DNA of 64,000 bases from the NCBI RefSeq assembly GCF_020179425.1, contig NZ_JAILYM010000001.1, forward strand, positions 62,001 to 126,000. Direction: 5' to 3'. Origin of the DNA: Novosphingobium percolationis. Lineage in GTDB: Bacteria; Pseudomonadota; Alphaproteobacteria; Sphingomonadales; Sphingomonadaceae. The stretch's first letter is position 1. Each line of letters begins with the position of its first letter. Positions 37,534 through 62,872 of the stretch are shown one piece after another. The notes under the pieces are model-generated. The model worked only from the letters and a program-made list of their open reading frames with translations. It was not told the origin of the DNA and did not search any database. A program made the translations under genes and the position numbers.

Positions 37534-37537
37534 CGGG

Positions 37538-40387: not shown

Positions 40388-40436
40388 CGATGCAATTGCT
40401 CTGGATTCCGCGCAAGCAGCGTGGGAAGGGGTAATT

Positions 40437-40450
40437 TAATCGAACGATTA
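40437..40450. promoter_or_regulatory. TAATCG-AA-CGATTA palindrome
   Basis: Perfect 6-base arms around two bases, 16 bases before the CoA-transferase start at 40467, close enough to the start to block initiation. It differs from the ATCTA-N7-TAGAT sites in spacing and sequence. Confidence 0.5.
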
Positions 40451-40466
40451 GGAAGCGCTGATTCAC

Positions 40467-42743: not shown

Positions 42744-42790
42744 GCCGGGGGCGGTTGCCCGATCGCGTGCGCCGCGCCACAGTGCGCGCG

Positions 42791-43687: not shown

Positions 43688-43781
43688 TATTCTCCATGGG
43701 AATACCGCATATGCAGTGACTTCATTTCTGCGAATGCAGCAGAAGGCGTACGCTCCTCACCACATAGATGGGAGAGTGGAC

Positions 43782-45026: not shown

Positions 45027-45032
45027 GGGGAA

Positions 45033-45052
45033 GGGCGTGCTGCGGCACGCCC
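45033..45052. terminator. terminator hairpin
   Basis: GGGCGTGC-TGCG-GCACGCCC, an 8-base perfect stem between the acyl-CoA dehydrogenase and the opposing cobQ. Confidence 0.7.
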
Positions 45053-45071
45053 TCCTGCGCCTGCCGTCGCG

Positions 45072-46535: not shown

Positions 46536-46692
46536 CGTCATCCTCCCTCGCACCGCGCGCTTCTATGCGAAAGCAGGGCTGAGGCAAGGTCCGCACCGAT
46601 GCGCGCGCCATAGTGGTTTGTGGCAATGGCGCAGCCAAAGATGGTTAAATTTCCTGTGCGAAACGTGGTGGGCCGATTGGAGAATCCTGCCC

Positions 46693-48183: not shown

Positions 48184-48195
48184 TGCGCCGGTGCG

Positions 48196-48537
48196 TCAGC
48201 GCTGCTTCTTGGCGATGGTCGCGGTGAAATCGGGGTCCTTGTTCGCCACCCAGTCGACGAACTTGCGCACCGCCGGGTTGGCGAGCAGGCCCTCCACGTC
48301 CATCCCGAAGCGCTGAAGCTCCGAATTGGTGAAGTTGACGATCAGCGTCTGCTGGCAGATCGAATGCATCGGCACCACGTCGCGCCCGCCCCGGCTCTTG
48401 GGGACGGGGTGATGCCACACGATGGTCGAGCCGGTGGGGCGCCCGCACAGCCAGCAGGGGACGGGCGGCGGCGCTTCTTCCTCGCTCTCGTCCTGCCAGT
48501 CGTCGCGGTAACCGTGCTTGGAATGCTTGCGCGCCAT
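48196..48537 (-). CDS. small HNH-endonuclease-like zinc protein
   Basis: Protein of 113 residues with a Cys28-x2-Cys31 pair, the His42-His43 core (IVWHHPVPKSRGG) and a His58/Cys61 pair, an arrangement like compact HNH/zinc-finger nucleases. The ATG at 48537 removes an unlikely Cys-rich N-terminal extension that is also open. Convergent with the chemoreceptor, with a 12-base gap. Whether it cleaves DNA is not certain; such small HNH proteins are common and often uncharacterised. Confidence 0.65.
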   Translation of the reverse strand: MARKHSKHGYRDDWQDESEEEAPPPVPCWLCGRPTGSTIVWHHPVPKSRGGRDVVPMHSICQQTLIVNFTNSELQRFGMDVEGLLANPAVRKFVDWVANKDPDFTATIAKKQR

Positions 48538-48601
48538 GGGTCTGCCTAATGCGGGGGTCAGGGCCTGCGTATAGCGGCAGCGCGCGACAATGCCACCATG
48601 C

Positions 48602-49168
48602 TCAGGACGAAGGCAGCGTTCCGGGGCGCAGGTAGGGGAACATATGCGCCACATAGTCCGCCTTGCCCAGCGGCACGCCCGCGCCGCGCAGGATCGCGTA
48701 GGCGGTCATCAGGTGGAAGTAGAACTGCGGCAGCAGCCAGTCGCGCACGTATTGCTCGGCTGTCAGGTCGAAGATCATGCCGTTGGGCAGCGCGTGCGCG
48801 ATCGGCGCGTCCGCCTCGGCGTCCAGAGCATCGGCGCCAAGGCCATCGAGCAGCGCCAGCGCCTCGGCGATGCGGGCCTTTGCCTGGGCCAGCGTGCCGG
48901 GGGCCTCGCCCGCGTCGCGCCCTTCGTTCAGCAGCACGGTCAACGAGGCGGGGAAGTCCTCGCCCTTGAGGCGGTGCACGCCTTCGTGGACCTGCACGCA
49001 GGCAAAGCGGATCTGGGTGGCGAGTGGAAACATGTCGGGCGCGAGCCGGGCGGAGAGCAGCGCATCGGCTTGCGCTGCGGGCAGGTGCCCCTGCGCCTTG
49101 TCCAGCCAGCCCGAAAGCGTGCCCAGCATCTGCCGGAAGGTCGGAACAACAAGGTTGTTCAAGGACAT
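48602..49168 (-). CDS. DUF1993 domain-containing protein
   Basis: Helical protein of 188 residues of the DUF1993 family, recognised from FRQMLGTLSGWLDKA, IRFACVQVHEGVHRLKG and the C-terminal LLPQFYFHLMTAYAILRGAGVPLG segment. The family has a DinB-like four-helix fold. No signal or membrane segment is seen. The ATG at 49168 is favoured over one four codons earlier, as DUF1993 proteins usually begin close to this motif. Its molecular role is not known; it lies next to an unrelated acyl-CoA dehydrogenase gene on the same strand. Confidence 0.75.
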   Translation of the reverse strand: MSLNNLVVPTFRQMLGTLSGWLDKAQGHLPAAQADALLSARLAPDMFPLATQIRFACVQVHEGVHRLKGEDFPASLTVLLNEGRDAGEAPGTLAQAKARIAEALALLDGLGADALDAEADAPIAHALPNGMIFDLTAEQYVRDWLLPQFYFHLMTAYAILRGAGVPLGKADYVAHMFPYLRPGTLPSS

Positions 49169-49235
49169 GCGGGGCTCCATCGGTTGCGCCAGCGCTGTCT
49201 AGGCGAGGGCGCCCCGGTTCCGCAATGGTCCTCTG

Positions 49236-50513
49236 TCAGCGGGCGGGAACGGCGCGGTCGAGCTGTTCGGGCAGGGTATAGTAGCGCGTGTTGCGGCCAA
49301 GGTTCGCCCCCACGCGGGCCAGCTCGTCCCTGGCGATCAGCCGCAGGTGAACCTCGTCCGGCCCGTCAAGGAAGTGCAGCGCGCGGCCCCAGGTGTAGAG
49401 GTAGGCGAGCGGCGTGTCCGATGTCAGCCCCATCGCCCCGAACACCTGGATCGCGCGGTCGAGCACGCGCGTCTGCAACTGCGCCGCCACCAGCTTGATC
49501 GCGGACACGTCGACCTTGGCCGCCTTGTTGCCGTGGCTGTCCAATCGCGCGGCGGCCTTCAGCACCAGCAGCCGCGCCATGTCGATCTCCACGCGCGACT
49601 GCGCGATCCAGTCCTGCACGTTGGCATTGGCCGAAACCTGCCGCCCGAAGGTGCGCCGTTCGAGCGCGCGTTCGCACATCAGGTCGAGCGCCAGCTCGCA
49701 CTGGCCGATGGTCCTCATGCAATGGTGGACGCGCCCCGGCCCGAGCCGGGCCTGCGCCAGCGCGAAGCCTTCACCTTCTGCCCCCAGCAGGTTGCCGACG
49801 GGCACCCGGCAGTTGCGGAACACGATCTCGCACTGGCCCTCGATCGCGTGGTGATGCAGGATCGGGATGTTGCGCACGATCGTCATGCCGGGGGTGTCCA
49901 TCGGCACGATCACCATCGAATGCCGCGCATGGACGGACGTGTCGTCGTCATCGCCGGTCACGCCCATCACGATGGCGAACCGGCACAGCGGATGCAGCGG
50001 CCCGGTGATGAACCACTTGCGCCCGTTGAGCACGTATTCATCGCCTTCGCGGCGGATCGATGTGCGGATGTTGGTGGCATCGGACGAAGCGACGTCGGGT
50101 TCGCTCATCGCGAAGCACGAGCGGATTTCGCCTTCGAGCAGCGGCACCAGCCATTGCGCGCGCTGCTCGGGCGTGGCGAACAGGTGCAGCAGTTCCATGT
50201 TGCCGCTGTCGGGCGCGTTGCAGTTGAAGGCCTCGGACGCCCACGGCAGCCGCCCCATGATCTCGGCCAGCGGGGCGTATTCCAGGTTGGTCAGCCGCGT
50301 GCCCGGCTCGTCGTCGCGCAACGCAGGCAGGAACAGGTTCCACAAGCCCTCGGAGCGCGCGATCTGCTTGAGCGGTTCCATGATATCCAGGGGAAAGCGC
50401 CCGGCCATGGTCTCGCGGTGCCATTGCGCGTTGTAGGGCAGCATGTAGCGGTCGAGGAACTCCTCCACCTGCTGGCGTAACGCATTGACCCTCGCGCTGA
50501 ATTCGAAATCCAT
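49236..50513 (-). CDS. acyl-CoA dehydrogenase (ACAD10/11-like)
   Basis: FAD acyl-CoA dehydrogenase of 425 residues, paralogous to the one at 43782. Shared segments include APDSGNMELL, MSEPDVASSDATN, LGPGRVHHCMRTIGQCE and the C-terminal FLDGPDEVHL. The family uses FAD and passes electrons to electron-transfer flavoprotein. It is divergent from the acyl-CoA dehydrogenase pair at 50710/51930 across a 196-base promoter holding an 8-base inverted repeat, so the three are probably co-regulated. Substrate chain not assignable. Confidence 0.88.
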   Translation of the reverse strand: MDFEFSARVNALRQQVEEFLDRYMLPYNAQWHRETMAGRFPLDIMEPLKQIARSEGLWNLFLPALRDDEPGTRLTNLEYAPLAEIMGRLPWASEAFNCNAPDSGNMELLHLFATPEQRAQWLVPLLEGEIRSCFAMSEPDVASSDATNIRTSIRREGDEYVLNGRKWFITGPLHPLCRFAIVMGVTGDDDDTSVHARHSMVIVPMDTPGMTIVRNIPILHHHAIEGQCEIVFRNCRVPVGNLLGAEGEGFALAQARLGPGRVHHCMRTIGQCELALDLMCERALERRTFGRQVSANANVQDWIAQSRVEIDMARLLVLKAAARLDSHGNKAAKVDVSAIKLVAAQLQTRVLDRAIQVFGAMGLTSDTPLAYLYTWGRALHFLDGPDEVHLRLIARDELARVGANLGRNTRYYTLPEQLDRAVPAR

Positions 50514-50612
50514 GGCCTTCGCCTCCGACGATCGTCCCCTCGCGCTGTCGGTTGGAGAGCAGCGCTGATGGCTCCGCCTTTGGCCAGCGCGGGGTCGCGG
50601 TCATTGTCCTCG

Positions 50613-50649
50613 ATCAATCGTCGGCGGGGTCATTAATTATTCGATTGAT
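50613..50649. promoter_or_regulatory. ATCAATCG-N21-CGATTGAT inverted repeat
   Basis: Perfect 8-base arms (50613-50620, 50642-50649) with an AT-rich spacer half, midway between divergent acyl-CoA dehydrogenase genes starting at 50513 and 50710. Likely operator; the TetR gene at 54139-54816 is the nearest candidate regulator. Confidence 0.5.
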
Positions 50650-50709
50650 TGACGGGCGATCGCCTCTGCCTCTAAGCCAGCACGCAGGAGCGGGTGAACG
50701 GGAAAATAC

Positions 50710-51915
50710 ATGGACATCGCATTCAGCGCCGAGCTTGAGGCCTTCCGGCGCGAGGTCGCCGCATTTCTCGACACTGCGCCCACGCCGGAAATCCGCGAGG
50801 CAGGCGCCAAGACCACCAGCGTCTTCGCCCCGTTCGAACAGGTCATGGCCTGGCAGAAGATCCTCCATGCCAAGGGCTGGGCCGCGCCGGGCTGGCCGAA
50901 AGAATACGGCGGCACCGGCTGGTCGGTCGAACAGCGCTACATCTTCGCCGAGGAATACTGGGCGCGCGACCTGCCGCCCTTGCTGCCCAACGGCCTTGGT
51001 ATGGTTGGGCCGCTGCTGATGGAGCTGGGCACCGAGGAGCAGAAGGCCAAGTACCTGCCGGGCATCCTCTCGGGCGAGGACTACTGGACGCAAGGCTATT
51101 CCGAACCCGGCGCCGGGTCCGACCTTGCCAGCCTCAGCTGTTCCGCTGTGGCCGATGGCGACGACTACGTCATCAACGGCAGCAAGATCTGGACGACGCT
51201 GGCGCACAAGGCCAACCGCATGTTCATGCTCGTGCGCACCAGCCGCGAGGGCAAGAAGCAGCAGGGCATCACTTTCCTGCTGCTCGACCGGGTGGACTAT
51301 CCGGGCATGGAAATCCGCCCGATCGTCGGGCTCGATGGCGTGCCCGAACAATGCGAGGTGTTCTTCACCAACGTGCGCGTGCCCCAGTCGGGCCGCGTCG
51401 GGGCCGAGAACGATGGCTGGACCGTGGCCAAGGCGCTGCTCAAGCACGAACGCGGCGGTTCGGCGCAAAGCCCGGCGATGTACCGCAAGCTCGACCAGTT
51501 GCGCGCCGCGGCGGCTGCCACTGCCTCGCCCAACGGCGGCACCTTCGCCGCCGATCCCGTATTCCAGCGCGATCTGGGCGAGCTGGAGGCCGAAATCGCC
51601 GCCTACGCCGCGTTCGAGAAGATGGTGCTCACCGGCCACCCCATCGGGCGCGATCCCGCGATGCCGTCGATGAACAAGGTGATGAGTTCGGAACTCGCGC
51701 AGCGCGTCTCGGTGCTGATGACGCGCGTGGCGGGCCTCAACGGCCTGCCGCTGCAACTGGGGGCGCTGGAGGTCGATAGCGGCATCGCGCCGCTCGGCTC
51801 GATGCACGATCTGGTCGCCATGCCCTATTACCTCAATTCGCGCGCCACCACGATCTACGCCGGGACCAACGAGGTCCAGCGCGACCTGATCGCCCGCACG
51901 CTGCCTGTCGGCTGA
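50710..51915 (+). CDS. acyl-CoA dehydrogenase, subunit of probable heteromer
   Basis: Acyl-CoA dehydrogenase of 401 residues. It has the FAD-binding loop WTQGYSEPGAGSDLASL and the C-terminal IYAGTNEVQRDLIAR, where the usual YEGT reads YAGT, so the standard short-chain catalytic Glu position is Ala. It is 14 bases upstream of a second, shorter acyl-CoA dehydrogenase. Such paired genes encode alpha2beta2 enzymes in steroid side-chain and ring degradation (FadE/ChsE type), where catalytic and FAD roles are divided between subunits. Weak AAAATAC leader; start fixed by homology of MDIAFSAELEAFR. Confidence 0.88.
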   Translation: MDIAFSAELEAFRREVAAFLDTAPTPEIREAGAKTTSVFAPFEQVMAWQKILHAKGWAAPGWPKEYGGTGWSVEQRYIFAEEYWARDLPPLLPNGLGMVGPLLMELGTEEQKAKYLPGILSGEDYWTQGYSEPGAGSDLASLSCSAVADGDDYVINGSKIWTTLAHKANRMFMLVRTSREGKKQQGITFLLLDRVDYPGMEIRPIVGLDGVPEQCEVFFTNVRVPQSGRVGAENDGWTVAKALLKHERGGSAQSPAMYRKLDQLRAAAAATASPNGGTFAADPVFQRDLGELEAEIAAYAAFEKMVLTGHPIGRDPAMPSMNKVMSSELAQRVSVLMTRVAGLNGLPLQLGALEVDSGIAPLGSMHDLVAMPYYLNSRATTIYAGTNEVQRDLIARTLPVG

Positions 51916-51929
51916 AGGAGCACGCCCCC

Positions 51930-53003
51930 ATGGATTTCACCTTCACTCCCGAACAGCAGATGCTGACCGATTCGCTCTCGCGCCTGCTCGGCCAGCACTA
52001 TGCCTTCGACCAGCGCCGCAAGATCGTGGCTTCGCCCGAGGGCCGCTCGACGCGCGTCTGGAACGAATTGCGCGACATGGGCCTGCTGGCCCTGCCATTG
52101 CCCGAAAGCCTTGGCGGGCTCGGCGGGTCGATCGTCGATGTCGTTGCCATCGGGGAACTGATGGGGCGCCATATCGTGGTCGAGCCGTGGTTGACGTCGG
52201 CTGCGGTTGCCGCTGCCGTCGTCGCCGCGACCGATCCCGCGCGCGCCGAAGCCCTGCTCGATGGTTCGGCGCTGGCCGCGCTGGCGCACGAGGAAGGCGC
52301 AGGCACCGCAGACCCTGCCACGATCGCCACGCGCATCGACGCGGCGGGGCGCCTGACCGGCGAAAAGGCGCTGGTCATCGCGGGCGACGCCGCCTCGGTG
52401 TTCATCGTCTCGGCCAAGGGCGCGGACGGTGCGCCCGCGCTCTATCTGGTCGATGGCGCCGCCGAAGGCCTGACCCGCCAGAGCTTCACCACCATCGACG
52501 GCCGCCGCGCCGCGCACCTGCGTTTCGCAAGCGTCGCGGTCACGCCCGTCGCGGGCGATCCCGCCGCCGTGCTGCGCGAGGTGCTGGCCACCGCGCTGAT
52601 CGGCTTCAGTGCCGAAGCGGTCGGCGCAATGGGCGCGCTGCTCGAAACCACCGCCACCTATGCCTCGACGCGCAAGCAGTTCGGCGTGCCCATCGCCAGC
52701 TTCCAGGTGATCGCGCATCGCCTCGCCGACATGAAGCTGGCCTATGTCAAAGCGCGCTCGCTGCTGCTCCACACCGCCGCGCTGGCCGAGGCCGGGGTCG
52801 CCTCAGCGCGCGAACTGTCGCTGCTCAAGGCGCAGGTGGGCAGGCTCGGACGGCAACTGGGCGAAAGCGCGGTGCAGATCCACGGCGGCGTCGGCATGAC
52901 CGACGAACTGTCGGTCGGGCACTACCTCAAGCGGATCTTGTTCGTGGATGCGCTGCTGGGGGGCGCCGACTACCACCTGCAAAGGATCGGCGCTGGCGTC
53001 TAG
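51930..53003 (+). CDS. acyl-CoA dehydrogenase, second subunit of probable heteromer
   Basis: Shorter acyl-CoA dehydrogenase of 357 residues. The middle beta domain is reduced, with Ala/Asp-rich loops. The C-terminal domain has YASTRKQFGVPIASFQVIAHRLADM and IHGGVGMTDELSVGHYLKR, but no YEGT segment at the end. This is the usual partner type of the ~400-residue subunit just upstream (14-base gap, AAGGAG before the start). Together they would dehydrogenate a bulky acyl-CoA such as a steroid or terpenoid intermediate. The stop overlaps the convergent MFS gene by 4 bases. Confidence 0.87.
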   Translation: MDFTFTPEQQMLTDSLSRLLGQHYAFDQRRKIVASPEGRSTRVWNELRDMGLLALPLPESLGGLGGSIVDVVAIGELMGRHIVVEPWLTSAAVAAAVVAATDPARAEALLDGSALAALAHEEGAGTADPATIATRIDAAGRLTGEKALVIAGDAASVFIVSAKGADGAPALYLVDGAAEGLTRQSFTTIDGRRAAHLRFASVAVTPVAGDPAAVLREVLATALIGFSAEAVGAMGALLETTATYASTRKQFGVPIASFQVIAHRLADMKLAYVKARSLLLHTAALAEAGVASARELSLLKAQVGRLGRQLGESAVQIHGGVGMTDELSVGHYLKRILFVDALLGGADYHLQRIGAGV

Positions 53004-54142
53004 GCGGCGGCTCGCGGGGATCGTGAAAGCGCCGCGACCGCGGCCAGCACCACGAACACCGCGCCGCTGAACAGCAGGATCACGTCGATCGAGCCGAGCC
53101 CGACCAGCTCGCCCGCGACCGACGGCAGCAGCGCTGCGCCGCCCAGCTGGAAAGCGGTCAGGTAGAGCACCGCCTGCCGCGCCGGGTCGATCTCCACCAG
53201 CCAGCCCGCGAAGAAGGGCAGCGTGAACAACCACACGAAGCCGAAGGCCGCGCTCACGCCAAGGATCGCCGCCTGATCGGCACGCGCCAGCTGGAACAGG
53301 CCTACCAGACCCGCGCCCGCGAGCGCGCAGGTCGCAATCGTCATGCGGCTGGGCAGGCGCTCGCCGATGCGCGCGGCGACCAGCGCCCCCACCACTTGCG
53401 CGACAAGGCAGGTCGAAACCGCCGTGCCTTCGAACGCGGGCGCGTGGCCATGGTGGATCAGCCAAAGCCCGAAATAGCCCCACACCGAGACGATCGCGCC
53501 GAGGAACAGCCCCGAGCCGGACAGGGCGACCAGCGCCCGCCCGCTCAACCCGCTGCGCTGCTCGTGCGTCTCTGCGGGCCGGATCGCGGCAGGCAGCAAC
53601 AGCGCCGATCCGGCAGAGACCACCGCGAAACCGGCCAGCGCCATCAGCGCAAGGTCGGTGCGCGATCCCATGCCCGCCAGTTGCGGCAGCACCGCGGCAA
53701 CCACCGCCTGCAACAGCGTCTGCACCGCAAGGAAGATCGCGCTCGCCCGCTCGACACGCGCCACACGCGAAATGGCGACGAGCGCGACGGCCACCATCAC
53801 GCCTTCGCACAGGCCCGCCGCCGCGCGGCCCGTGCCCAGCACGGCCATGCCGCCACGCCCCCGCAGGCTCGCGTCGATGGCGGCCAACGCAAGGCTGGCA
53901 AGGCAGGCAACGAAACGCGCATCCAGCCGCTTGAGCAGCGCGATCCCGCCAATCGACCCGATGACGATGGCCAGCATCTCGATGGTGACGAGGTTGCCGA
54001 GCTGCGCATCGCCCAGCCGTTGTTCCTGCACCAGCGCGCCCAGAAATACCGGATGCACCCCCAGGATCAGCAGCCCGCACGATCCGATGACGATGGCCTG
54101 TGCCAGCGCCATGCTTCCGAGCGGCGGCGCGCGCCCGGTCAA
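53000..54142 (-). CDS. MFS transporter
   Basis: Major facilitator family membrane protein of 380 residues with about 12 short hydrophobic helices, starting ALAQAIVIGSCGLLILGVHP. It has a basic cytoplasmic loop after helix 2 and the central loop RPAETHEQRSG. It is related in style to the MFS protein at 10528, both having short loops and a degenerate loop 2-3 motif. Its start overlaps the TetR gene stop (4 bases), so the two are coupled and the transporter is probably TetR-controlled. Export of a toxic intermediate or uptake of a substrate cannot be told apart. Confidence 0.82.
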   Translation of the reverse strand: MTGRAPPLGSMALAQAIVIGSCGLLILGVHPVFLGALVQEQRLGDAQLGNLVTIEMLAIVIGSIGGIALLKRLDARFVACLASLALAAIDASLRGRGGMAVLGTGRAAAGLCEGVMVAVALVAISRVARVERASAIFLAVQTLLQAVVAAVLPQLAGMGSRTDLALMALAGFAVVSAGSALLLPAAIRPAETHEQRSGLSGRALVALSGSGLFLGAIVSVWGYFGLWLIHHGHAPAFEGTAVSTCLVAQVVGALVAARIGERLPSRMTIATCALAGAGLVGLFQLARADQAAILGVSAAFGFVWLFTLPFFAGWLVEIDPARQAVLYLTAFQLGGAALLPSVAGELVGLGSIDVILLFSGAVFVVLAAVAALSRSPRAAA

Positions 54143-54816
54143 GCGGGCTTGGTCCCGGCGGCGCGCAGCGGCAGGTATTCAGGCAGGAACGTGCGCGAAT
54201 AGGCGATCCGCGCCCGTCGCGCCTGTTCCTCCATGGCGTCGGTGATGAAGCCGTGGCGGTGGATCGACAGCGACCAGATCGCATCGCTGATCACGATCAC
54301 TTCGACCAGCCGGTCGCGCAGGTCGGGCACTTCCGGCATCACGAACAGCGCGTCCATCAGCTCCAGGCTGCGCTGTGCGGTCACGTAGTTGCTATCGTGG
54401 TCCTGTATGCCGATGTCGGGCGACCACGCCGGCCCACCCAGCAGCACCTGCCGCGCGGCGGGGTGCGCGTTGAACCACTGCTGCGCCGCGCGGAACTGGC
54501 GGGTCTGCAGATCCTGCCAGCTTTCGACGTTTTCGGGCACTTCGGTCAGCACGGTCTGTTCGAACCGGCGCAGGTAGCGTTCGGCCAGCGCGCTGAACAC
54601 CAGCTGCGGCTCGGGAAAGAAGTGATAGATCGAAGGCGGCGAAATACCGACTTCGGCAGCAATTGCGTGAATGCTGAGCGCGGCGGTGGGCAGCTTGTCT
54701 AGCAGGCGCTCGGCCCCGTCGAGGATCGCCTCGAAACGGACCTTGCTGCGCTTCTGCGCGGGGCGGCGAATTTCGGGGCGGCCGCTGGGATGGGGCGTCA
54801 GGCGAGTGTCGGACAT
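54139..54816 (-). CDS. TetR-family transcriptional regulator
   Basis: Regulator of 225 residues from the ATG at 54816. The N-terminal HTH is IAAEVGISPPSIYHFFPEPQLVFSAL (about 49-74), following a basic RPAQKRSKVRFEAIL helix. The C-terminal domain has many aromatic residues (W, F, Y around 98-135) that suit a hydrophobic ligand. It is divergent from the TonB receptor at 54951 and coupled to an MFS gene. Candidate targets are its own promoter, where CGACA-AA-TGTCG lies near 54923-54934, and the inverted repeat at 50613-50649. Confidence 0.87.
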   Translation of the reverse strand: MSDTRLTPHPSGRPEIRRPAQKRSKVRFEAILDGAERLLDKLPTAALSIHAIAAEVGISPPSIYHFFPEPQLVFSALAERYLRRFEQTVLTEVPENVESWQDLQTRQFRAAQQWFNAHPAARQVLLGGPAWSPDIGIQDHDSNYVTAQRSLELMDALFVMPEVPDLRDRLVEVIVISDAIWSLSIHRHGFITDAMEEQARRARIAYSRTFLPEYLPLRAAGTKPA

Positions 54817-54889
54817 GGCCGTAAGGATCACGCGCTTCGCATCCAAAAGCAATCGGGAGTCCGAAAAAAAGTCCATATACGAATCATTC

Positions 54890-54934
54890 TTGACACATTT
54901 TGCAATTCGGTCACTCCTATTGCGACAAATGTCG
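54890..54934 (+). promoter_or_regulatory. promoter region with -35-like TTGACA and CGACA-AA-TGTCG palindrome
   Basis: TTGACA at 54890-54895 is a consensus -35 for the TonB receptor gene (start 54951); the -10 is unclear. Downstream, CGACA and TGTCG arms (54923-54934) around two bases could be an operator for the divergent TetR protein. Confidence 0.45.
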
Positions 54935-54950: not shown

Positions 54951-57188
54951 ATGACGATGATGCGCGTTGCTACCCTGGTATCGGTTTCGTTGCTGGCTCT
55001 CGCGCCGCTCGCGGCAAGGGCGGAGGAGGCGCCGCCGCCCAAGGCCGAAGGGCCTAAGGCTGTGGGATTGGGGGAGATCGTCGTCACCGCGCAGCGCCGC
55101 GCCCAGAACGTGCAGGACGTGCCGATCAGCATTGCCGCGATCAGCGGCGAGGCGCTGGCGCAGGCCGGCATCCGCGATCCGCGCGACCTGTCGCTGCTGG
55201 TGCCGGGGCTGTCGTCACAGGCGGGCACGGCAGCCACCACCACGTCGCTGTTCCTGCGCGGGGTGGGCATCGGCGATTTCAACTCGAACACCACCGGCGC
55301 GGTCGGCGTCTATGTCGATGACGTGTTCCTCGGCGCCAACGCGGGCAAGCTGTTCAACGTGTTCGACAGCGACGGGATCGAGGTGCTGAAGGGGCCGCAG
55401 GGTACGCTCTATGGCCGCAATACCACGGCGGGCGCGATCCGCTTCACATCGCGCAAGCCGACCGACACCTTCACCGCCAACGGCTCGGCCTCCTATGGCC
55501 GCTACAACGAGATCCAGCTCGAAGGCGGCGTCGGCGGCCCGATCGCGGGCGATGTGTTGAAGGCGCGCGTTTCGGGCACCTATCTCAAGCGCGATGGCTG
55601 GCTGCTCAACCGCGTCACCGGGCACAAGCTCAACGATCTCGATATGTGGGCGGGCCGCGCGATCGTGGACTTCACGCCCAACGCCGACACGCTGATCCGC
55701 GCCATCGTCCACGGCGGGCAGAACCGGGGCGGCGCGCGGCAGTTCCAGCATCGCGGGCAGGGCATCGATTTCGCCGGAAACCCCAACTACGCCAACGGCG
55801 TGCCGCTCGATGGGCTGGGCTATGCCGATACCGACCACAACCTCAACGCGGGCGACTACGACGTCGAGGGCAAGGAAAAGGTCGACGTGTTCGGCGCCTC
55901 GCTGACGGCCAGCGTCCAGCTAGACAAGGTCACGCTCACCTCGATCAGCGCCTATGAACAGGTGCGCCGCCACACGCTGGAAGATACCGACGCCAGCCCC
56001 AACAACGTCATCACCGCCACCTACATCGACCGGCCCGAACAGTTCAGCCAGGAACTGCGGCTGCAATCGCGCGATGGTGGCAAGGTGAACTGGATCGTCG
56101 GCGGCTACTACTTCCACGACAATCTCGTGACCAAGAGCGCCTACGACATTCTGCGCGTGTTCCGCGATCCGAACGACCTGCTCGGCACGTTCGATCCGGC
56201 CAACTCGATCGGCAACTTCGTCTTTCCCTACACGCAGAAGACCGAAAGCTGGGCCGCCTTCGCGCAGGCCGACGTCAAGCTGACAGACAAGCTGACCGTG
56301 ACCGGCGGCCTGCGCTACTCGGTCGACAAGATCGACTTCGATTTCCACTCGGCCTTCGATGACGTGATCTTCGTGCCGGTCCTCGATTTCGCCGGGTCCA
56401 AGACCTTCCGCGACCTGTCGTGGCGCGGGGCCATTTCCTATCAGGCGACCAACGACGTGCTGCTCTATGCCACCGCGTCGAAGGGCTACAACAGCGGCGG
56501 CTTTGCGGGCGGCTCGTCGAGCGATCCGGCGCAACTCAAGCCGTTCCGGTCTGAAAAGCTCTACGCCTACGAGGCGGGCTTCAAGAGCGAGGTTCTGGGC
56601 CGCACGCTGCGCTTCAACGCCGCCGCGTTCTACTACAATTATCAGGACCTGCAGGTCTTCGTGTTCGATACCTCGGGCGTGATCCCGGTGCAGCGCAAGC
56701 TCAATGCCGGCAATGCCGAGATCTATGGCGTGGAGGCAGAGCTTCAGGCGCAGCCGAGCCGCAACTTCAACGCCTTCGTCAACCTCAGCCTGCTCCACGC
56801 GCGCTACAAGACCTTTACCGCGCTGTCGGCGGCGGACTATTCGGGCAACCAGCTGGTCAACGCGCCCTCGGTCGCGATTTCGGCAGGCTTCGCGCTGACC
56901 CAGCCGCTACCCGGCGAGAGCGCGCTGCGTCTGCGCATGGACGGCAGCTTCCAGTCCGAAACCTTCCTCGCGCCCGACAACCTGCCCGGCAACCGCGTCG
57001 CGCCTTATGCGCTCGCCAATGCCCGGCTGTCGTGGCTCTCGCGCGACGAGAAGCTGGAATTCGCGCTCTGGGCCAAGAACATCACCAACACGCGCTTCAT
57101 CACCTACGTCTCGCCCGTGATCACGCAGGACGAGATCAACTACAACGACCCCGCCACCTACGGCGTGCAGGTCGTCTTCAAGTTCTGA
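54951..57188 (+). CDS. TonB-dependent outer-membrane receptor
   Basis: Outer-membrane receptor of 745 residues. The signal peptide ends at AARAEE (about residue 24), a Pro/Lys/Glu linker leads to GEIVVTAQRRAQNVQ, and the plug motif is IEVLKGPQGTLYGRNTTAG; the barrel ends in VQVVFKF. It heads a same-strand run with an aminotransferase (20-base gap), a kinase and an aldolase, so uptake of their substrate is inferred. ATG 54957 is an equally good start, two codons in. Divergent from a TetR gene that may control it. Confidence 0.92.
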   Translation: MTMMRVATLVSVSLLALAPLAARAEEAPPPKAEGPKAVGLGEIVVTAQRRAQNVQDVPISIAAISGEALAQAGIRDPRDLSLLVPGLSSQAGTAATTTSLFLRGVGIGDFNSNTTGAVGVYVDDVFLGANAGKLFNVFDSDGIEVLKGPQGTLYGRNTTAGAIRFTSRKPTDTFTANGSASYGRYNEIQLEGGVGGPIAGDVLKARVSGTYLKRDGWLLNRVTGHKLNDLDMWAGRAIVDFTPNADTLIRAIVHGGQNRGGARQFQHRGQGIDFAGNPNYANGVPLDGLGYADTDHNLNAGDYDVEGKEKVDVFGASLTASVQLDKVTLTSISAYEQVRRHTLEDTDASPNNVITATYIDRPEQFSQELRLQSRDGGKVNWIVGGYYFHDNLVTKSAYDILRVFRDPNDLLGTFDPANSIGNFVFPYTQKTESWAAFAQADVKLTDKLTVTGGLRYSVDKIDFDFHSAFDDVIFVPVLDFAGSKTFRDLSWRGAISYQATNDVLLYATASKGYNSGGFAGGSSSDPAQLKPFRSEKLYAYEAGFKSEVLGRTLRFNAAAFYYNYQDLQVFVFDTSGVIPVQRKLNAGNAEIYGVEAELQAQPSRNFNAFVNLSLLHARYKTFTALSAADYSGNQLVNAPSVAISAGFALTQPLPGESALRLRMDGSFQSETFLAPDNLPGNRVAPYALANARLSWLSRDEKLEFALWAKNITNTRFITYVSPVITQDEINYNDPATYGVQVVFKF

Positions 57189-57208
57189 CCATTCGGGAGA
57201 GGATACCC

Positions 57209-58489
57209 ATGAACCGGGCCATCGATCAGGCTTTGCGCGAACGTGCGCTGAAGGTCATTCCCAACGGCATGTACGGCCACGAATCCGTACGTCTGCTGCC
57301 CGCCAGCTTCCCGCAATTCTTCAGCAAGGGCGAGGGCGCCTACATCTGGGATGCGGACGGCAACCGCTATCTCGATTTCATGTGCGCCTATGGCCCCAGC
57401 CTGCTCGGCTATCGCCATCCGCAGGTCGATGCGGCGGCGCGCGCGCAGCTGGAAAAGGGCGATACGCTGACCGGGCCGGGGCCGGTGATGGTCGAGCTTG
57501 CCGAAACGCTCGTCGGCATGATCGACCATGCCGACTGGGTGATGTTCTGCAAGAACGGCACCGATGCCACAACCATGGCGATGAGCACGGCGCGCGCGCA
57601 GACCGGCAAGCGCGTGGTGCTGGTGGCGCAAGGGGCCTATCACGGCGCCGCGCCGTGGTGCACGCCGATCCCGGCGGGCGTCGTGGCCGAGGACCGCGCG
57701 CATATCCGCACCTACATCTACAATGATTGCGCCAGTCTGGAGCAGGCCGTGGCTGCCGCGGGCGACGATCTCGCCGCGATCTTCGCCGCGCCCTTCCGGC
57801 ACGATGCCTTCACCGATCAGGAACTGCCCGATCCGGCCTATGCCAAGCTCGCCCGAGCGCTGTGCGACCGCACCGGGGCCAAGCTGATCGTCGATGAAGT
57901 GCGCGCGGGCTTCCGCCTCGCGCGCGGCAGCAGCTGGGATGCGCTGGGGGTGCAGCCGGACCTCAGCGCCTGGGGCAAATGCTTTGCCAACGGCCACCCG
58001 ATCTCGATGCTCGCGGGCGCGGAGTCCTGCCGCGAAGGCGCGGGTTCGATCTATGCCACGGGTTCGTTCTGGCTTTCCGCCGTGCCGATGGCCGCCGCGA
58101 TCGAAACGCTGCGGATCATCCGCGAGACCGACTATCTGGAACACAGCGTCCGCCTCGGCGATGCGCTGCGCGCCGGTCTGGCCGAGGCCGCCACGCGCCA
58201 CGGCTTCACCTTGCGCCAGAGCGGCCCGGTGCAGATGCCGCAGATCCTGTTTGCCGACGATCCCGATTTCCGCATCGGCTATGCCTGGGTCGAAGAACTG
58301 CTGGCGCGCGGCATCTACATGCACCCCTGGCACAACATGTTCCTCTGCGCCGCGATGACGGAAGGTGACATCGACATGGCGCTCGCCGCCGCCGATGAGG
58401 CCTTCGCCGCCGTGCGCGCGCGGATCGACACGCTGGAGCCGCATCCCGTTCTGGTGGCTATGGCAGCCATGCTCGAACACCACGATTGA
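57209..58489 (+). CDS. class III aminotransferase (glutamate-1-semialdehyde aminomutase-like)
   Basis: PLP enzyme of 426 residues. Lys257 in SAWGKCFANGHPI carries PLP, Asp229-Glu230 begin DEVRAGFR, and CKNGTDATTMAM is the phosphate-binding region. The pattern is that of the glutamate-1-semialdehyde 2,1-aminomutase group, but HemL-specific context is absent and the enzyme sits between a TonB receptor and a sugar-kinase-type gene. It therefore probably transaminates an amino group on an imported compound. The start at 57209 follows GGGAGAGG. The PfkB gene follows after 2 bases. Confidence 0.85.
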   Translation: MNRAIDQALRERALKVIPNGMYGHESVRLLPASFPQFFSKGEGAYIWDADGNRYLDFMCAYGPSLLGYRHPQVDAAARAQLEKGDTLTGPGPVMVELAETLVGMIDHADWVMFCKNGTDATTMAMSTARAQTGKRVVLVAQGAYHGAAPWCTPIPAGVVAEDRAHIRTYIYNDCASLEQAVAAAGDDLAAIFAAPFRHDAFTDQELPDPAYAKLARALCDRTGAKLIVDEVRAGFRLARGSSWDALGVQPDLSAWGKCFANGHPISMLAGAESCREGAGSIYATGSFWLSAVPMAAAIETLRIIRETDYLEHSVRLGDALRAGLAEAATRHGFTLRQSGPVQMPQILFADDPDFRIGYAWVEELLARGIYMHPWHNMFLCAAMTEGDIDMALAAADEAFAAVRARIDTLEPHPVLVAMAAMLEHHD

Positions 58490-58491
58490 GC

Positions 58492-59415
58492 ATGGCTACC
58501 CCGCTCGATCTGATCGCCTTCGGCCTCACCACGCTCGACATCGCGGTGCACCGCGTCACCGCGCTGCCCGATGGCGAGGAAGGGCAACTGGTCGATACCA
58601 TCGCGCTGTCGCCTGCCGGAACCGCTGGCGGCACCGCGCTGGTCGCCCGCCAGCTCGGCCTTGCCAGCGCCATCGCCTCGGCGGTGGGGGATGATCCGCA
58701 AGGCCAGCTGGTGCGCGCGCTGTTCGACAAGGCGGGCGTCGATACCACGTTGCTCGCCACCGACCCCGCGCACCCCACGTCCACCACCGTCCTGCCGATC
58801 AAGGCCAATGGCGACCGGCCCAACTGGCACATGATCGGGGCCAGCCTGTTCGCGCCCGCCGGGCCGGACCTGATCGCCGCGCTCGATCGCACGGCGGCAC
58901 TGCACTGGGGCGCGGTCGGCTTTCCCGGCACGGCGGGGCAGGGCGCACAGGTGCTGCAAGCAGCGCAAGCGCGCGCCGTCTATACCACCTGCGACCTGAT
59001 CGCCCCCGGTCCCGACGCCTTGCGCGAACTCGAAGCGCTGCTGCCCCACGTCGACCTGTTCATGCCCAGCCTCGCCGAAGTCGCCGCCCTGCTCGGCACG
59101 CGCGATCCGGTCGAGGGCGCACAAGCTTTCATGGCGCGCGGCGCGCGCGGCTGCCTGATCAAGCTCGGCGCACAAGGCGCGTTGCTGGTGCGACCCGACG
59201 CCCAGATCCACATGCCGGCGCTGCCGATCACCCCGGTCGATACCACCAGCTGCGGCGACAGTCTCTGCGCCGGTTTCCACGCGGCCCGGCTGCGCGGGGC
59301 TGGCGATGAAGCCGCGCTGCGTTTCGCCGTCGCCACCGCCGCGCAAGTCGCGCTGGGCGTGGGCACGCTCGGCAAGCTGGAGAGCTACGAAAGCACGCTG
59401 GAGTTGACACAATGA
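58492..59415 (+). CDS. PfkB-family carbohydrate/nucleoside kinase
   Basis: Ribokinase-like kinase of 307 residues. The N-terminal GTAGGTALVARQLG contacts substrate. The C-terminal anion-hole and catalytic base motif is DTTSCGDSLCAGF, where most members have DTTGAGD; the catalytic Asp is kept. ATG 58492 is preferred to an upstream TTG. Its stop overlaps the aldolase start. With a class II aldolase downstream, phosphorylation followed by aldol cleavage of a sugar-like or hydroxyketone product is inferred, as in 5-deoxyribose or fuculose routes. Substrate unknown. Confidence 0.87.
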   Translation: MATPLDLIAFGLTTLDIAVHRVTALPDGEEGQLVDTIALSPAGTAGGTALVARQLGLASAIASAVGDDPQGQLVRALFDKAGVDTTLLATDPAHPTSTTVLPIKANGDRPNWHMIGASLFAPAGPDLIAALDRTAALHWGAVGFPGTAGQGAQVLQAAQARAVYTTCDLIAPGPDALRELEALLPHVDLFMPSLAEVAALLGTRDPVEGAQAFMARGARGCLIKLGAQGALLVRPDAQIHMPALPITPVDTTSCGDSLCAGFHAARLRGAGDEAALRFAVATAAQVALGVGTLGKLESYESTLELTQ

Positions 59416-60050
59416 CCGAAGCCGAAGCACGCGCCGCGCTGGTCGATGCCATGCGCGCGCTCGATGCGCGGGGCCTCAACCGCGGCACCTCGGGCAACGT
59501 CTCGATCCGTTTCGGTAACGGGATGCTGGTCACGCCCTCGGGCTTCACTCCGGACCGGCTCACGCCCGACCTGATGGTTCCCGTCAGCGCCATGGGCGAG
59601 GTGCGCGAAGGTTCGGCTCGCCCGTCGAGCGAATGGCAGATGCACATGGGCCTGCTGCGCCGCCGCCCCGACGTGGGCGCGGTGGTCCATTGCCACGCCC
59701 GCCACGCCACGATCCTGGCCTGCGCGCACCGCGCGATCCCGCCGTTGCACTACATGGTCGCGGTCAGCGGCGGCTCCTCCGTGCCCGTGGCTCCTTACGC
59801 CACCTTCGGCACCGAGGCGCTGGCCGATGCGGTGGCGGACACACTCGAAGGGCGCAACGCCTGCCTCATGGCCAACCACGGGCTGATCGCGCTCGGCCGC
59901 ACGCTCTCGCAGGCGATGGCCATCGCCGAGGAGATCGAGGAACAGGCCGCCGTCTACTGCGGCACCCTCGCCATCGGCGGCCCGCAGCTGCTGGACCAGG
60001 CCGAAATGACCCGCATCGTCGATGCCTTCTCCCGCTACGGCCAGAAGTAG
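59412..60050 (+). CDS. class II aldolase/adducin family protein
   Basis: Zn-dependent aldolase of 212 residues of the fuculose-1-phosphate/ribulose-5-phosphate-epimerase family. GTSGNVSIRFGNGMLVTPSG binds phosphate; Zn ligands are the two His of VVHCHARHATIL and a later His in MANHGLIALG; a catalytic Glu is in the SSEWQMHMG region. Start ATG overlaps the kinase stop (ATGA). The kinase-aldolase pair predicts a phosphorylated intermediate split into a three-carbon phosphate or ketone and an aldehyde. Decarboxylation of a hydroxy-keto acid is a known alternative for the family. Confidence 0.87.
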   Translation: MTEAEARAALVDAMRALDARGLNRGTSGNVSIRFGNGMLVTPSGFTPDRLTPDLMVPVSAMGEVREGSARPSSEWQMHMGLLRRRPDVGAVVHCHARHATILACAHRAIPPLHYMVAVSGGSSVPVAPYATFGTEALADAVADTLEGRNACLMANHGLIALGRTLSQAMAIAEEIEEQAAVYCGTLAIGGPQLLDQAEMTRIVDAFSRYGQK

Positions 60051-60141: not shown

Positions 60142-61237
60142 GTGAAGGGATTGACGGCATCGTCCGATGAACTGCTGACGCTGGACTTGTTCCGGTTCCT
60201 GTCGTCGGTTGCGATCGTGTATCACCACTCGCACGAATATTTCGTTGCCCCTGCCTTTCGTGCTGCGGCAGGGCAACGCACGGCGGGGCTTGCACTATTT
60301 GTCGATCTGTTCTTTCTGATCTCCGGCTTTGTGATCGCCTTACGTCTACAGTGATCGTATCCACCAGCCGGGCGGTGTCCTGCGATTTGGACAGAAGCGA
60401 TTTGCACGGCTGTTTCCGCTGCATTGGCTGACGCTGCTTCTGTCAATTGCGCTCTGGGCCATCGTCACGCGTTTTGTGCATGTCGATCATGCGCCGTCTA
60501 CTGATCCGAAGTGCATCGTGCTGACAGCGGCGCTGCTCCAGGGAATTTTCCCCTGTGGAAACGGCATATACTACAATTTCCCGAATTGGTCGTTGAGCGT
60601 CGAGATCGCGATGTATGCACTCTACCCGCTGCTCGCTTGGCTGATCGGTGCCGGTCGGCGGATGTATCTCGGATTTTCGCTGCTGCTCTTCCTTGCCATC
60701 GGAATGTATGCGTTTCGCCTGACGACTGGCGTGCTGAACTGGACGGATTTGTACGATCCGCTGCGTGCCTTGCCATCCTTCATGCTGGGCACGGCGCTTG
60801 CCGCGAACCGCGACCTCCTCAAGGCGATTCCGGCGGCACAACCTTTGAGCCTGCTGTCATTCGCGGTCGCGGTGGCGCTGGCGTTGACGGGAGGCGCCGC
60901 GCCGCTTCAGCTTGCGGCGATGGTGCTTGCCGGCACATTCGCAATTGCTGCCGATACGCAAGGGAAGGTGGCTGGGTGGACAGCCAAGGTCGCACCATTG
61001 GGACAACTGACCTATTCGTTGTACCTTTGGCATGTCTTGGTCATCATGGTCTTGATGAACGGTATCGCGGACAAGCTGATGCGCGGCAATACGGCGGTGC
61101 TCGTGGTGTGCACCGTGCTGACGTACGTCGGCATCGCGATCCTCAGCTATCTTTCCTGGCGCTATTTCGAAACGCCTGCGCGGATATGGCTCGATGGATG
61201 GTTCCGCCGCCGCAACTCGCGAGAGGCGCGCGCCTGA
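60142..61237 (+). pseudogene. acyltransferase family 3 membrane protein, frameshifted
   Basis: Acyltransferase-3 (OafA/Nodulation X-like) integral membrane protein interrupted near 60340. Codons from the GTG at 60142 give LDLFRFLSSVAIVYHHSHEY and LFLISGFVIA, then shift to a stop at 60352-60354. The next frame reads on from there as YVYSDRIHQPGGVLRFG then KRFARLFPLHWL and continues to 61237 with about eight more helices, ending SWRYFETPARIW. Removing one T at 60339-60341 would restore a protein of about 365 residues. Codon use and lower GC than the neighbours suggest acquired DNA. A sequencing error or programmed shift is not excluded. The family acylates sugars or cell-surface polymers. Confidence 0.75.
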
Positions 61238-61363
61238 TCCTGCTGCGACCACCTGTCTGATCCCGCCAGAAACTTGGCGCACGCAGACGTTGCACAACGC
61301 GTCGTCCTTCGCGACTATCCCTCCACGAAAAGCCCCGAAGGGGTTGCGCAGGAGGATCTGAAA

Positions 61364-62872
61364 GTGAGTGACGTATTGGAGGCTGTGGCCGACGCCCGCG
61401 GCCACGCGGTCGAGGAATTCGACGTGCTCATCGTCGGGGCCGGGATTTCCGGCATCGGCAGCGCATACCATCTCCAGACGCAATGCCCCGGCAAGCGCTA
61501 CGCGATCCTGGAAGCCAAGGACGACATCGGCGGCACCTGGCACACGCACCGCTATCCCGGCGTGCGCTCGGACAGCGATCTCTACACTTTCGGCTACCGC
61601 TTCAAGCCGTGGGTCGGTCCGCCGATCGCCACCGCCGATGAAATCCGCAAGTACCTGCGCAGCGTCGTCAGCGAAAACGGCATCGACAAGACCATCCGCT
61701 TCGGCACCCATATCACGCGCTGTGCGTGGTCGAGCGCGGACAAGCGCTGGACAGTCGAGACCACCACCGCCGACGGCAAGCCGGGGCGCACCTATCGCGC
61801 CAACTTCCTGTGGATGTGCCAGGGCTACTACGACCATCACAACCCCTACATGCCCGCATGGCCGGGCATGGAAGATTACAAGGGCCTGCTCGTCCATGCG
61901 CAGAAGTGGGACGAGAGCATCGACTATGCCGGCAAGCAGGTGGTGGTGATCGGATCAGGCGCGACCGCCGCCACGGTGATCCCGGCGATGGCCGACAAGG
62001 CCGCGCACGTCACCATGTTGCAGCGCTCGCCCACCTACTTCTACGCCTATCCCAACCGCAGCGATCTGGTCGACCGCCTGAACGAGATCGGCGTGGACGA
62101 AGAGACGATCCACCACTGCGCGCGGCTCGATTACCTGCACAACCTCAAGACGATGGACCGCCGCGCGCGTGAGGAACCGGACGTCGTGTTCGAGGAACTG
62201 AAGGAGCTGATCCGGCAATATGCCGGGCCGGACTTCGATTTCACGCCGCACTTCACCCCGCGCTATCGCCCATGGCAGCAGCGGCTGGCCTTCGTGCCCG
62301 ATGGTGACATGTTCGAACAGATCCGCGACGGCAAGGTGTCGGCCGTCACAGATACCATCGACCACTTTACCGCCGATGGCATCAAGCTCGCTTCGGGGCA
62401 GGACCTGAAGGCCGACGTGGTGGTCGCGGCTACCGGCTTCAACCTGCTGGTCATGGGCGGTATCACGTTCGAGGTCGATGGCACGGTGGTCGACTGGTCG
62501 CAGACCCCGACCTATCGCGGCATGATGTTCGCAGGCGTGCCCAACCTCGTCTGGGTATTCGGCTACTTCCGCGCGGCCTGGACGCTGCGTGTCGACCTGC
62601 TGGGCGACTTCGTGTGCAGGCTGTTGCAGCACATGGACGAAAAGGGCCGGTCGGAGATCAACATCGTCGTGCCCGAGGGCCTCGGCGATGAAGCCCTGCT
62701 GCCTTGGATCGAGGACGACAACTTCAACCCCGGCTACCTCGTGCGCGACATGGACAAGCTGCCCAAGCGGCTGGGCGACCGCCCCGAATGGCGCCACACG
62801 CAGGACTATTGGCGCGAGGCCGAGGACATTCCCGCGATCGACCTCGACGGCGCGGAGTTCGCCTACAGTTGA
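61364..62872 (+). CDS. Baeyer-Villiger-type flavin monooxygenase (EthA-like)
   Basis: FAD/NADPH monooxygenase of 502 residues. First Rossmann motif IVGAGISGIGSAY (about 23-35), then GGTWHTHRYPGVRSDSD. A BVMO-like signature YKGLLVHAQKWD follows the second nucleotide-binding region start, and VVVIGSGATAATV binds NADPH. GTG 61364 has GGAGG 8 bases upstream; a TTG 30 codons earlier is less likely. Such enzymes insert oxygen next to a ketone or oxidise sulfur. It is followed by a hairpin and a convergent AraC gene. A ketone from the GMC or retro-aldol steps is a possible substrate, which is speculation. Confidence 0.9.
   Translation: MSDVLEAVADARGHAVEEFDVLIVGAGISGIGSAYHLQTQCPGKRYAILEAKDDIGGTWHTHRYPGVRSDSDLYTFGYRFKPWVGPPIATADEIRKYLRSVVSENGIDKTIRFGTHITRCAWSSADKRWTVETTTADGKPGRTYRANFLWMCQGYYDHHNPYMPAWPGMEDYKGLLVHAQKWDESIDYAGKQVVVIGSGATAATVIPAMADKAAHVTMLQRSPTYFYAYPNRSDLVDRLNEIGVDEETIHHCARLDYLHNLKTMDRRAREEPDVVFEELKELIRQYAGPDFDFTPHFTPRYRPWQQRLAFVPDGDMFEQIRDGKVSAVTDTIDHFTADGIKLASGQDLKADVVVAATGFNLLVMGGITFEVDGTVVDWSQTPTYRGMMFAGVPNLVWVFGYFRAAWTLRVDLLGDFVCRLLQHMDEKGRSEINIVVPEGLGDEALLPWIEDDNFNPGYLVRDMDKLPKRLGDRPEWRHTQDYWREAEDIPAIDLDGAEFAYS

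What the first reader, a model, noticed from the sequence alone, without database searches (positions are those of the whole stretch)
54951..60050. Receptor-aminotransferase-kinase-aldolase run suggests a new uptake and cleavage pathway
A TonB receptor is followed with 20, 2 and -4 base spacing by a GSA-aminomutase-like transaminase, a PfkB kinase with the altered motif DTTSCGD, and a class II aldolase. The order predicts amine removal, phosphorylation and aldol cleavage of an imported amino-polyol or amino-sugar-like molecule. I know of no standard pathway with exactly this set.
Basis: inference. Interest (0 to 1): 0.5.

Follow-up and report, generated by a model that had tools for sequence, protein, structure and literature searches.

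The report
Amine-to-DHAP catabolic operon, substrate unassigned
A small, regulated gene set in a Novosphingobium-type bacterium appears to import an amino-alcohol (plant or fungal phytosphingosine is the best guess), remove its amine, phosphorylate it and cut it into a glycolysis intermediate plus an aldehyde; the same trio recurs in other bacteria but has no assigned substrate.

Summary
The run is real, with the stated spacings (20, 2, -4 bases) and the motif DTTSCGD. It is a conserved module, not a chance neighbourhood. A divergent TetR-MFS pair completes it; the order MFS-TetR <> TonB receptor, aminotransferase, PfkB kinase, aldolase is kept in all 8 loci whose aminotransferase is at least 78% identical. 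In 195 same-genus genomes the kinase occurs in 5, always beside the aminotransferase; in 366 genomes of the order in 4, again always beside it (two shared). The trio also clusters in Caulobacter, Hyphomonas, a gammaproteobacterium and an actinomycete. The aminotransferase is no GSA aminomutase: its closest solved relative is FumI, which deaminates hydrolysed fumonisin, a sphingoid analogue (60.8% identity). The aldolase keeps FucA's recalled zinc, acid and phosphate-site residues. Best reading: a 2-amino-1,3,4-triol is deaminated to a ketose-like ketone, phosphorylated at C1 and cleaved to dihydroxyacetone phosphate plus an aldehyde. Phytosphingosine fits FucA stereochemistry (recalled), but the substrate is not shown; sugar-type transporters in two distant relatives and absent ceramidases argue for caution.

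The parts
53000..54142 (-). MFS-like transporter, probable inner-membrane uptake; overlaps the TetR gene by 4 bases
   Evidence: PF07690, 29.3 bits, just under its cut-off of 33.4, so a weak assignment; a homologue lies beside TetR in 8 of 8 loci L003-L010
54139..54876 (-). TetR-type regulator, divergent from the catabolic genes
   Evidence: PF00440, 32.1 bits over cut-off 24
54923..54934 (.). operator-like inverted repeat CGACA-AA-TGTCG, 16 bases before the TonB receptor start
   Evidence: same repeat in L005, repeats with compensating changes at the aligned place in L006, L007, L009, L010, imperfect in L003, L004, L008; the consensus scan found no sigma-70 promoter here
54951..57188 (+). TonB-dependent outer-membrane receptor
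57209..58489 (+). FumI-type class III aminotransferase, PLP lysine K257
   Evidence: (60.8% over 411 aa to PDB 6hbs)
58492..59415 (+). PfkB/ribokinase-family kinase with DTTSCGD motif (alternative start TTG 58486)
59412..60050 (+). FucA-type class II (zinc) aldolase

Best explanation
A TetR-controlled operon for using an imported 2-amino polyol with the head HOCH2-CH(NH2)-CHOH-CHOH-R. Steps: (1) uptake by the TonB receptor and the MFS-like protein [inferred from families and linkage]; (2) the FumI-type aminotransferase moves the C2 amine to pyruvate, leaving a ketose-like 1,3,4-trihydroxy-2-ketone [inferred from 61% identity to FumI]; (3) the PfkB kinase phosphorylates the C1 hydroxyl [inferred]; (4) the FucA-type aldolase cuts C3-C4 into dihydroxyacetone phosphate and an aldehyde R-CHO [inferred from conserved active-site residues]. 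The best single substrate candidate is phytosphingosine: its C2 ketone would be (3R,4R), the configuration that FucA-type aldolases cleave (recalled chemistry), giving DHAP and pentadecanal. The confidence given is for the three-step mechanism; for phytosphingosine specifically it is about 0.35.
For: Same operon order in all 8 loci whose aminotransferase is at least 78% identical. In the genomes searched the kinase was never away from the aminotransferase (5 of 5 carriers in 195 genomes; 4 of 4 in 366 genomes; 7 distinct). Of 79 related loci counted, 16 have the kinase, and each of these has a class II aldolase-family gene (14 of the window's type, 2 closer to the OtnC type); orders differ: divergent in L034 and L036, kinase-aldolase-aminotransferase in L061, aldolase-aminotransferase-kinase in L013 and L017. 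The trio also sits in the actinomycete Nonomuraea. FumI is the closest solved relative by a wide margin, 576 bits against 179 for the next, and removes the C2 amine of hydrolysed fumonisin B1 (PMC2933618, start of abstract in the listing). The aldolase keeps N29, G44, S72, S73, E74, H93, H95, Y114 in 17 of 17 rows and H156 in the 16 rows that reach it; FucA T43 is Ser in 15 and Thr in 2 (residue roles recalled). Alanine racemase and D-amino-acid dehydrogenase genes lie in L024 and L034, as needed to recycle alanine if pyruvate is the acceptor. Amide hydrolases of the DMFA2_C family follow the aldolase in 4 of the 16 kinase loci (L005, L022, L024, L034); their nearest solved relative is an N-acetyl-beta-phenylalanine acylase, over a short stretch, so an N-acyl group may be removed first.
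Against: No substrate, product or enzyme activity is shown. Ceramidase PF04734 is absent from all 5 same-genus kinase carriers (6 of 195 genomes match at E<=0.001, 4 over the cut-off). PfkB enzymes are small-sugar kinases as a rule; none for long-chain lipids is known to me. L061 has a GPH-type MFS and GH88 in its operon and L108 an SBP_bac_1 transporter nearby, which look sugar-oriented. The receptor is not constant: in other kinase loci the TonB receptor is only 33-37% identical or not found. No fatty-aldehyde gene lies in the window operon. The FumI relatives reported active on hydrolysed fumonisin are 63.7-74.2% identical to FumI (PMC9858248, passages); the window protein, at 60.8%, is slightly outside that range.
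Confidence: 0.6

Rival explanations
1. Same three-step chemistry, but on a small hydrophilic amino-polyol or amino-sugar alcohol rather than a sphingoid base.
For: PfkB kinases and FucA aldolases act on sugars (recalled); of 309 plasmid records with a kinase match, the three more distant ones that I opened (35-40% identity) all sit with sugar ABC transporters, one with a class II aldolase and one with a gene annotated methylthioribulose-1-phosphate dehydratase; L061 has GH88 and a GPH-type transporter in its operon; L108 has an SBP_bac_1 transporter nearby.
Against: The aminotransferase is FumI-like, and FumI takes a long-chain substrate; glucosaminitol and galactosaminitol would give fructose- or tagatose-configured ketoses, the wrong stereochemistry for a FucA-type aldolase (recalled); few natural small molecules known to me carry a D-ribo 2-amino-1,3,4-triol.
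Confidence: 0.3
2. A mycotoxin (fumonisin-type) detoxification cluster.
For: FumI homology and a TonB receptor beside it.
Against: No esterase-family hit among the operon proteins or the flanking proteins scanned (window genes before 33134 were not scanned); fumonisin carries a methyl, not a hydroxymethyl, at C1 (recalled), so a kinase and DHAP-forming aldolase would have no evident role.
Confidence: 0.06
3. The kinase and aldolase serve a separate sugar pathway that is merely next to the aminotransferase.
For: The aminotransferase occurs without the kinase in 13 of 18 same-genus carriers.
Against: The reverse was not seen in the same searches (0 of 5 and 0 of 4 carriers); the linkage survives rearranged gene orders and two phyla; junctions of 2 and -4 bases in the window.
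Confidence: 0.07

Closest known systems
FumI aminopentol aminotransferase (PDB 6hbs, Sphingopyxis sp. MTA144)
   Same: 60.8% identity over 411 residues without gaps, same PLP lysine motif WGKCFANG
   Different: FumI is known from fumonisin breakdown; here the enzyme is tied to a kinase and an aldolase, which hydrolysed fumonisin would not evidently need. The gene content of the fum cluster itself could not be checked
L-fuculose-1-phosphate aldolase FucA (PDB 1fua)
   Same: 44% identity over 202 aligned residues; zinc, acid and phosphate-site residues kept apart from T43S (roles recalled)
   Different: below the FucA curated cut-off (190.8 vs 400.25 bits); the operon has no other gene recognised as fucose-related
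Sulfo-EMP pathway (YihV kinase, YihT aldolase)
   Same: PfkB-family kinase makes a ketose-1-phosphate analogue, the aldolase releases DHAP and an aldehyde (PMC9594981, passages)
   Different: its ketose comes from an isomerase, not an aminotransferase; YihT is of another (class I) aldolase family
3-oxo-tetronate kinase OtnK plus decarboxylase OtnC
   Same: a kinase plus class II aldolase-family pair; also near FumI-type aminotransferases in 5 of 79 related loci and in 3 of the 7 plasmid records opened for the aminotransferase
   Different: OtnK is not a PfkB kinase (recalled); the window aldolase scores 119.7 against the OtnC cut-off of 250 bits
Pseudomonas aeruginosa sphBCD
   Same: bacterial handling of sphingoid bases; sphBC matters for growth with phytosphingosine too (PMC11893366, passages)
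   Different: a predicted oxidoreductase, a cytochrome c and a predicted PLP-dependent aldolase; the window operon has none of these families

Membership tests
FumI / aminopentol aminotransferase | class III aminotransferase with the FumI sequence pattern and PLP lysine | tested here: met
   PF00202 at 134 bits; 576 bits to 6hbs, K257 aligned
FumI / aminopentol aminotransferase | deaminates hydrolysed fumonisin B1 | not testable with these tools
   needs purified enzyme
Fumonisin degradation cluster | carboxylesterase (FumD) near the aminotransferase (adjacency recalled) | tested here: not met
   no esterase-family hit in the operon or the flanking proteins scanned; some scanned frames had no family hit at all, and genes before 33134 were not scanned
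Glutamate-1-semialdehyde aminomutase | passes curated GSA-AM model cut-offs | tested here: not met
   223 vs 398 and 199.5 vs 527.3 bits
FucA-type class II aldolase fold and site | zinc histidines, catalytic Glu, phosphate-site residues | tested here: met
   (residue roles recalled; T43 replaced by Ser)
L-fuculose-phosphate aldolase (equivalog) | passes curated cut-off TIGR01086 | tested here: not met
   190.8 vs 400.25 bits
PfkB/ribokinase family | PF00294 domain and the Gly-Asp catalytic motif | tested here: met
   136 bits; D256 invariant in 22 of 22 rows
A named PfkB kinase (ribokinase, IolC, tagatose kinase and others in NCBIfam) | passes that model's cut-off | tested here: not met
   19 models matched, none at its cut-off; best 84.1 vs 300 bits
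3-oxo-tetronate-4-phosphate decarboxylase (OtnC) | passes NF043034 cut-off | tested here: not met
   119.7 vs 250 bits

The most novel reading that the evidence does not exclude
A bacterial route that treats phytosphingosine as a sugar: C2 deamination to a D-ribulose-configured lipid ketone, phosphorylation by a sugar-type kinase, and aldol cleavage to DHAP and pentadecanal. It would bypass sphingosine-1-phosphate lyase and feed glycolysis and fatty-acid oxidation from plant and fungal membranes.
Probability: 0.3. Interest if true: 0.8.

Novelty: new variant of a known kind. Interest (0 to 1): 0.5.

Why it matters
FumI-family enzymes are mined as mycotoxin detoxifiers (PMC9858248), yet the family's ordinary substrate is unknown to me. 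This module suggests what part of the family is for: making ketose-like ketones from 2-amino alcohols so that common kinase and aldolase chemistry can finish the job. If the substrate is phytosphingosine, it gives a testable bacterial route for one of the main sphingoid bases of plants and fungi (abundance recalled).

Tried and rejected
Ceramidase co-occurrence gave no support for a ceramide source. A structure prediction of the 670-residue unknown protein in L061 was worthless (mean pLDDT 34.5) and was not used. NCBIfam gave no name for that protein or for the two DMFA2-type hydrolases tried. The P450 beside the L083 module has macrolide P450s (P450eryF) as nearest solved relatives, not fatty-acid hydroxylases, so it does not point to lipid. 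G+C content of the operon (67.5%) equals the window's (67.0%), so it gives no sign of foreign origin. Paper searches for phytosphingosine with aminotransferase or transaminase, aldolase or DHAP, for sphingoid-base use by soil bacteria (20 of 32 listed) and for aminotransferase, PfkB and class II aldolase (10 of 18 listed) showed no title or abstract start describing this pathway; only listings were seen for most of them, and the library holds only open-licence PMC papers, so this is weak evidence. Two searches for the gene content of the fum cluster (no paper, 8 of 10 listed) showed no description of it, so whether it holds a kinase or aldolase is unchecked. The window FMO gene at 61274-62872 was rejected as part of the operon: its protein has no match in L003-L010. 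The promoter and terminator scan gave nothing above shuffles.

Rows dropped before counts: 79 of the 80 loci were counted (L082 has only an aminotransferase fragment); L033 is not counted as kinase-bearing because its kinase is cut by the contig end. Several loci are cut by contig ends, so counts are lower bounds. The same organisms recur in the locus set and in the genome searches (identical or near-identical aminotransferases), so these counts are not independent. In one search the window's own copies L001 and L090 were skipped; several of the 22 kinase rows come from near-identical genomes. In one search, L001, L090, L017 and L091 were left out as self or near-duplicates, as were short or stop-bearing rows. 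In one search, L001, L077, L080, L081 and L089 were left out where present.
Full report
WHAT IS THERE. The four genes lie exactly as described: TonB receptor 54951-57188, aminotransferase 57209-58489, kinase 58492-59415, aldolase 59412-60050, with gaps of 20, 2 and -4 bases. Pfam confirms each family. Upstream and divergent lie a TetR gene (54139-54876) and an MFS-like transporter (53000-54142; Pfam score just under its cut-off) that overlap by 4 bases. An inverted repeat, CGACA-AA-TGTCG, stands at 54923-54934, 16 bases before the receptor start. At the aligned place L005 has the same repeat, L006 and L010 have CGGATA-AA-TATCCG, and L007 and L009 have related repeats with matched arm changes, while L003, L004 and L008 are imperfect and L014 shows none. 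In the window it is the only match with up to one mismatch, against 0.39 expected, which alone is not significant.

IS IT CONSERVED. One genome-collection scan found 195 relatives of the aminotransferase and kept the best 80 loci. MFS-TetR <> TonB receptor-aminotransferase-kinase-aldolase is intact in L003-L010, the 8 loci with aminotransferases 78-83% identical to the window's: Blastomonas, Parasphingorhabdus, Novosphingobium olei and five Sphingopyxis. Of 79 loci counted, 16 have the kinase, and each of these also has a class II aldolase-family gene, 14 of the window's type and 2 (L013, L017) closer to the OtnC type; the kinase match lies 13-177 bases from the aminotransferase match in 14 of the 16, 829 in L061 (with the aldolase between) and 1111 in L036. 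The order is rearranged in Hyphomonas (L034), Caulobacter (L036), a Cellvibrionaceae MAG (L061) and two Novosphingobium (L013, L017). The receptor is less constant: outside the eight it is 33-37% identical or not found. A Nonomuraea record adds a second phylum: kinase (36.6%) directly before the aminotransferase (51.5%), with TetR and aldolase divergent.

GENOME-WIDE TEST OF LINKAGE. Among 195 genomes of the window's genus, 18 have the aminotransferase (E<=1e-80) and 5 the kinase (E<=1e-35), 5 of 5 adjacent. The aldolase search (E<=1e-25) found 11 genomes, 5 of them at this locus (3 at 67-100% identity, 2 at 40-41% on the other side of the aminotransferase). Among 366 genomes of the order, 5 have the aminotransferase and 4 the kinase, 4 of 4 adjacent; two of these are also in the genus set, so 7 distinct genomes carry the kinase. 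Among 149 drawn from the family, 2 have the aminotransferase and 1 (the window's own) the kinase and the aldolase. So the module is rare and accessory but tightly linked. These genomes overlap with the named loci and are not independent of them. The genus is Novosphingobium by inference: several unnamed same-genus genomes carry aminotransferases identical to those of named Novosphingobium contigs.

THE AMINOTRANSFERASE. Its best solved relative is 6hbs, aminopentol aminotransferase, 576 bits, against 179 for the next, a GSA aminomutase. Identity to FumI is 60.8% over 411 residues with no gaps. FumI removes the C2 amine of hydrolysed fumonisin B1 (PMC2933618, start of abstract in the listing; passages). 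Five family members are reported active on that substrate, with pyruvate in the assay of the three newest (PMC9858248, passages and one section); those three are 63.7-74.2% identical to FumI, and the fifth, FumIB, 65%. In the tree the window protein groups with the eight full-operon loci (9 rows, 100/98), apart from FumI. Sixty-six positions are near-invariant in 83 rows.

THE KINASE AND ALDOLASE. The kinase belongs to PfkB but reaches no named cut-off; its nearest solved relative is ydjH, 3h49. The Cys of DTTSCGD is constant in 22 of 22 rows and in Nonomuraea, so it marks this kinase group rather than a defect. The aldolase is 44% identical to FucA and keeps the residues recalled as zinc ligands, catalytic acid, Tyr113 and phosphate site; Thr43 is Ser in 15 of 17 rows. 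This favours a DHAP-releasing aldolase over a decarboxylase or epimerase, and FucA-type cleavage needs a C1 phosphate, which gives the kinase its role (inference from recalled FucA chemistry).

NEIGHBOURS THAT BEAR ON THE SUBSTRATE. Alanine racemase and D-amino-acid dehydrogenase genes lie directly after the aminotransferase in L034 and about 5 kb away in L024, as expected if pyruvate accepts the amine. DMFA2_C hydrolases follow the aldolase in L005, L022, L024 and L034; the solved relative is an N-acetyl-beta-phenylalanine acylase, matched over a short stretch only. Amidases sit beside the aminotransferase in Phenylobacterium loci and, at 31-34% identity to those, near it in Bradyrhizobium loci, both without the kinase. 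OtnK plus OtnC pairs occur in 5 of 79 loci, at 1-5 kb, and in three plasmid records. Against a lipid substrate: GH88 and a GPH-type transporter in the L061 operon, an SBP_bac_1 transporter near the L108 genes, and no ceramidase in any of the five same-genus carriers.

HOW IT MOST LIKELY WORKS. The order implies deamination at C2, phosphorylation at C1 and cleavage between C3 and C4. The needed head is HOCH2-CH(NH2)-CHOH-CHOH-R. Phytosphingosine has an amine at C2 and hydroxyls at C1, C3 and C4 (PMC7711896, passage). Its natural D-ribo form is 2S,3S,4R (recalled); its 2-ketone would be (3R,4R) by CIP reasoning, the same as D-ribulose and L-fuculose, which is what FucA-type aldolases cleave (recalled). 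The products would be DHAP and pentadecanal. Glucosaminitol or galactosaminitol would give the wrong configuration. No step is shown by experiment; the substrate is a guess at about 0.35, while the three-step mechanism is about 0.6.

KNOWN OR NEW. Each enzyme family is known, and kinase-plus-aldolase release of DHAP is known from sulfoquinovose (PMC9594981, passages). I saw no paper describing the aminotransferase-kinase-aldolase combination in the listings, in an incomplete library. The P. aeruginosa sphingosine genes are of other families (PMC11893366, passages).

Noticed in passing
window 60142-61237: An acyltransferase-3 gene downstream of the operon appears broken: 60142-60354 ends in a stop after 70 codons and a second piece of the same family is read from 60476.
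   Followed up: partly
window 61274-62872: FMO-like monooxygenase (FMO-like and Pyr_redox_3 hits) with a Y-K-G-x3-H-x3-W-D stretch resembling the Baeyer-Villiger motif (seen by eye in the printout; the strict F-type pattern did not match). Not conserved beside the operon in L003-L010.
   Followed up: partly
L018, L019, L020, L021, L026, L030: FumI-type aminotransferases without kinase or aldolase sit with a TonB receptor, a flavin monooxygenase and an acetyl-CoA-synthetase-like gene, suggesting another fate of the ketone, such as oxygenation and acetate release.
   Followed up: partly
L040, L047, L048, L053, L075, L086, L087, L088: OtnK- and OtnC-type genes near FumI-type aminotransferases, a second kinase plus class II aldolase-family pairing with this transaminase family.
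   Followed up: partly
window 45949-48183: Methyl-accepting chemotaxis protein with a protoglobin sensor domain.
   Followed up: no
window 33134-53003: Acyl-CoA dehydrogenases, a CoA-transferase, a Rieske oxygenase, a P450 and an AMP-binding ligase look like a separate aromatic, steroid or fatty-acid catabolic region.
   Followed up: no
L014:3769-4914: A phage-type integrase lies about 3 kb from the Erythrobacter copy of the module, hinting at spread on a mobile element.
   Followed up: no
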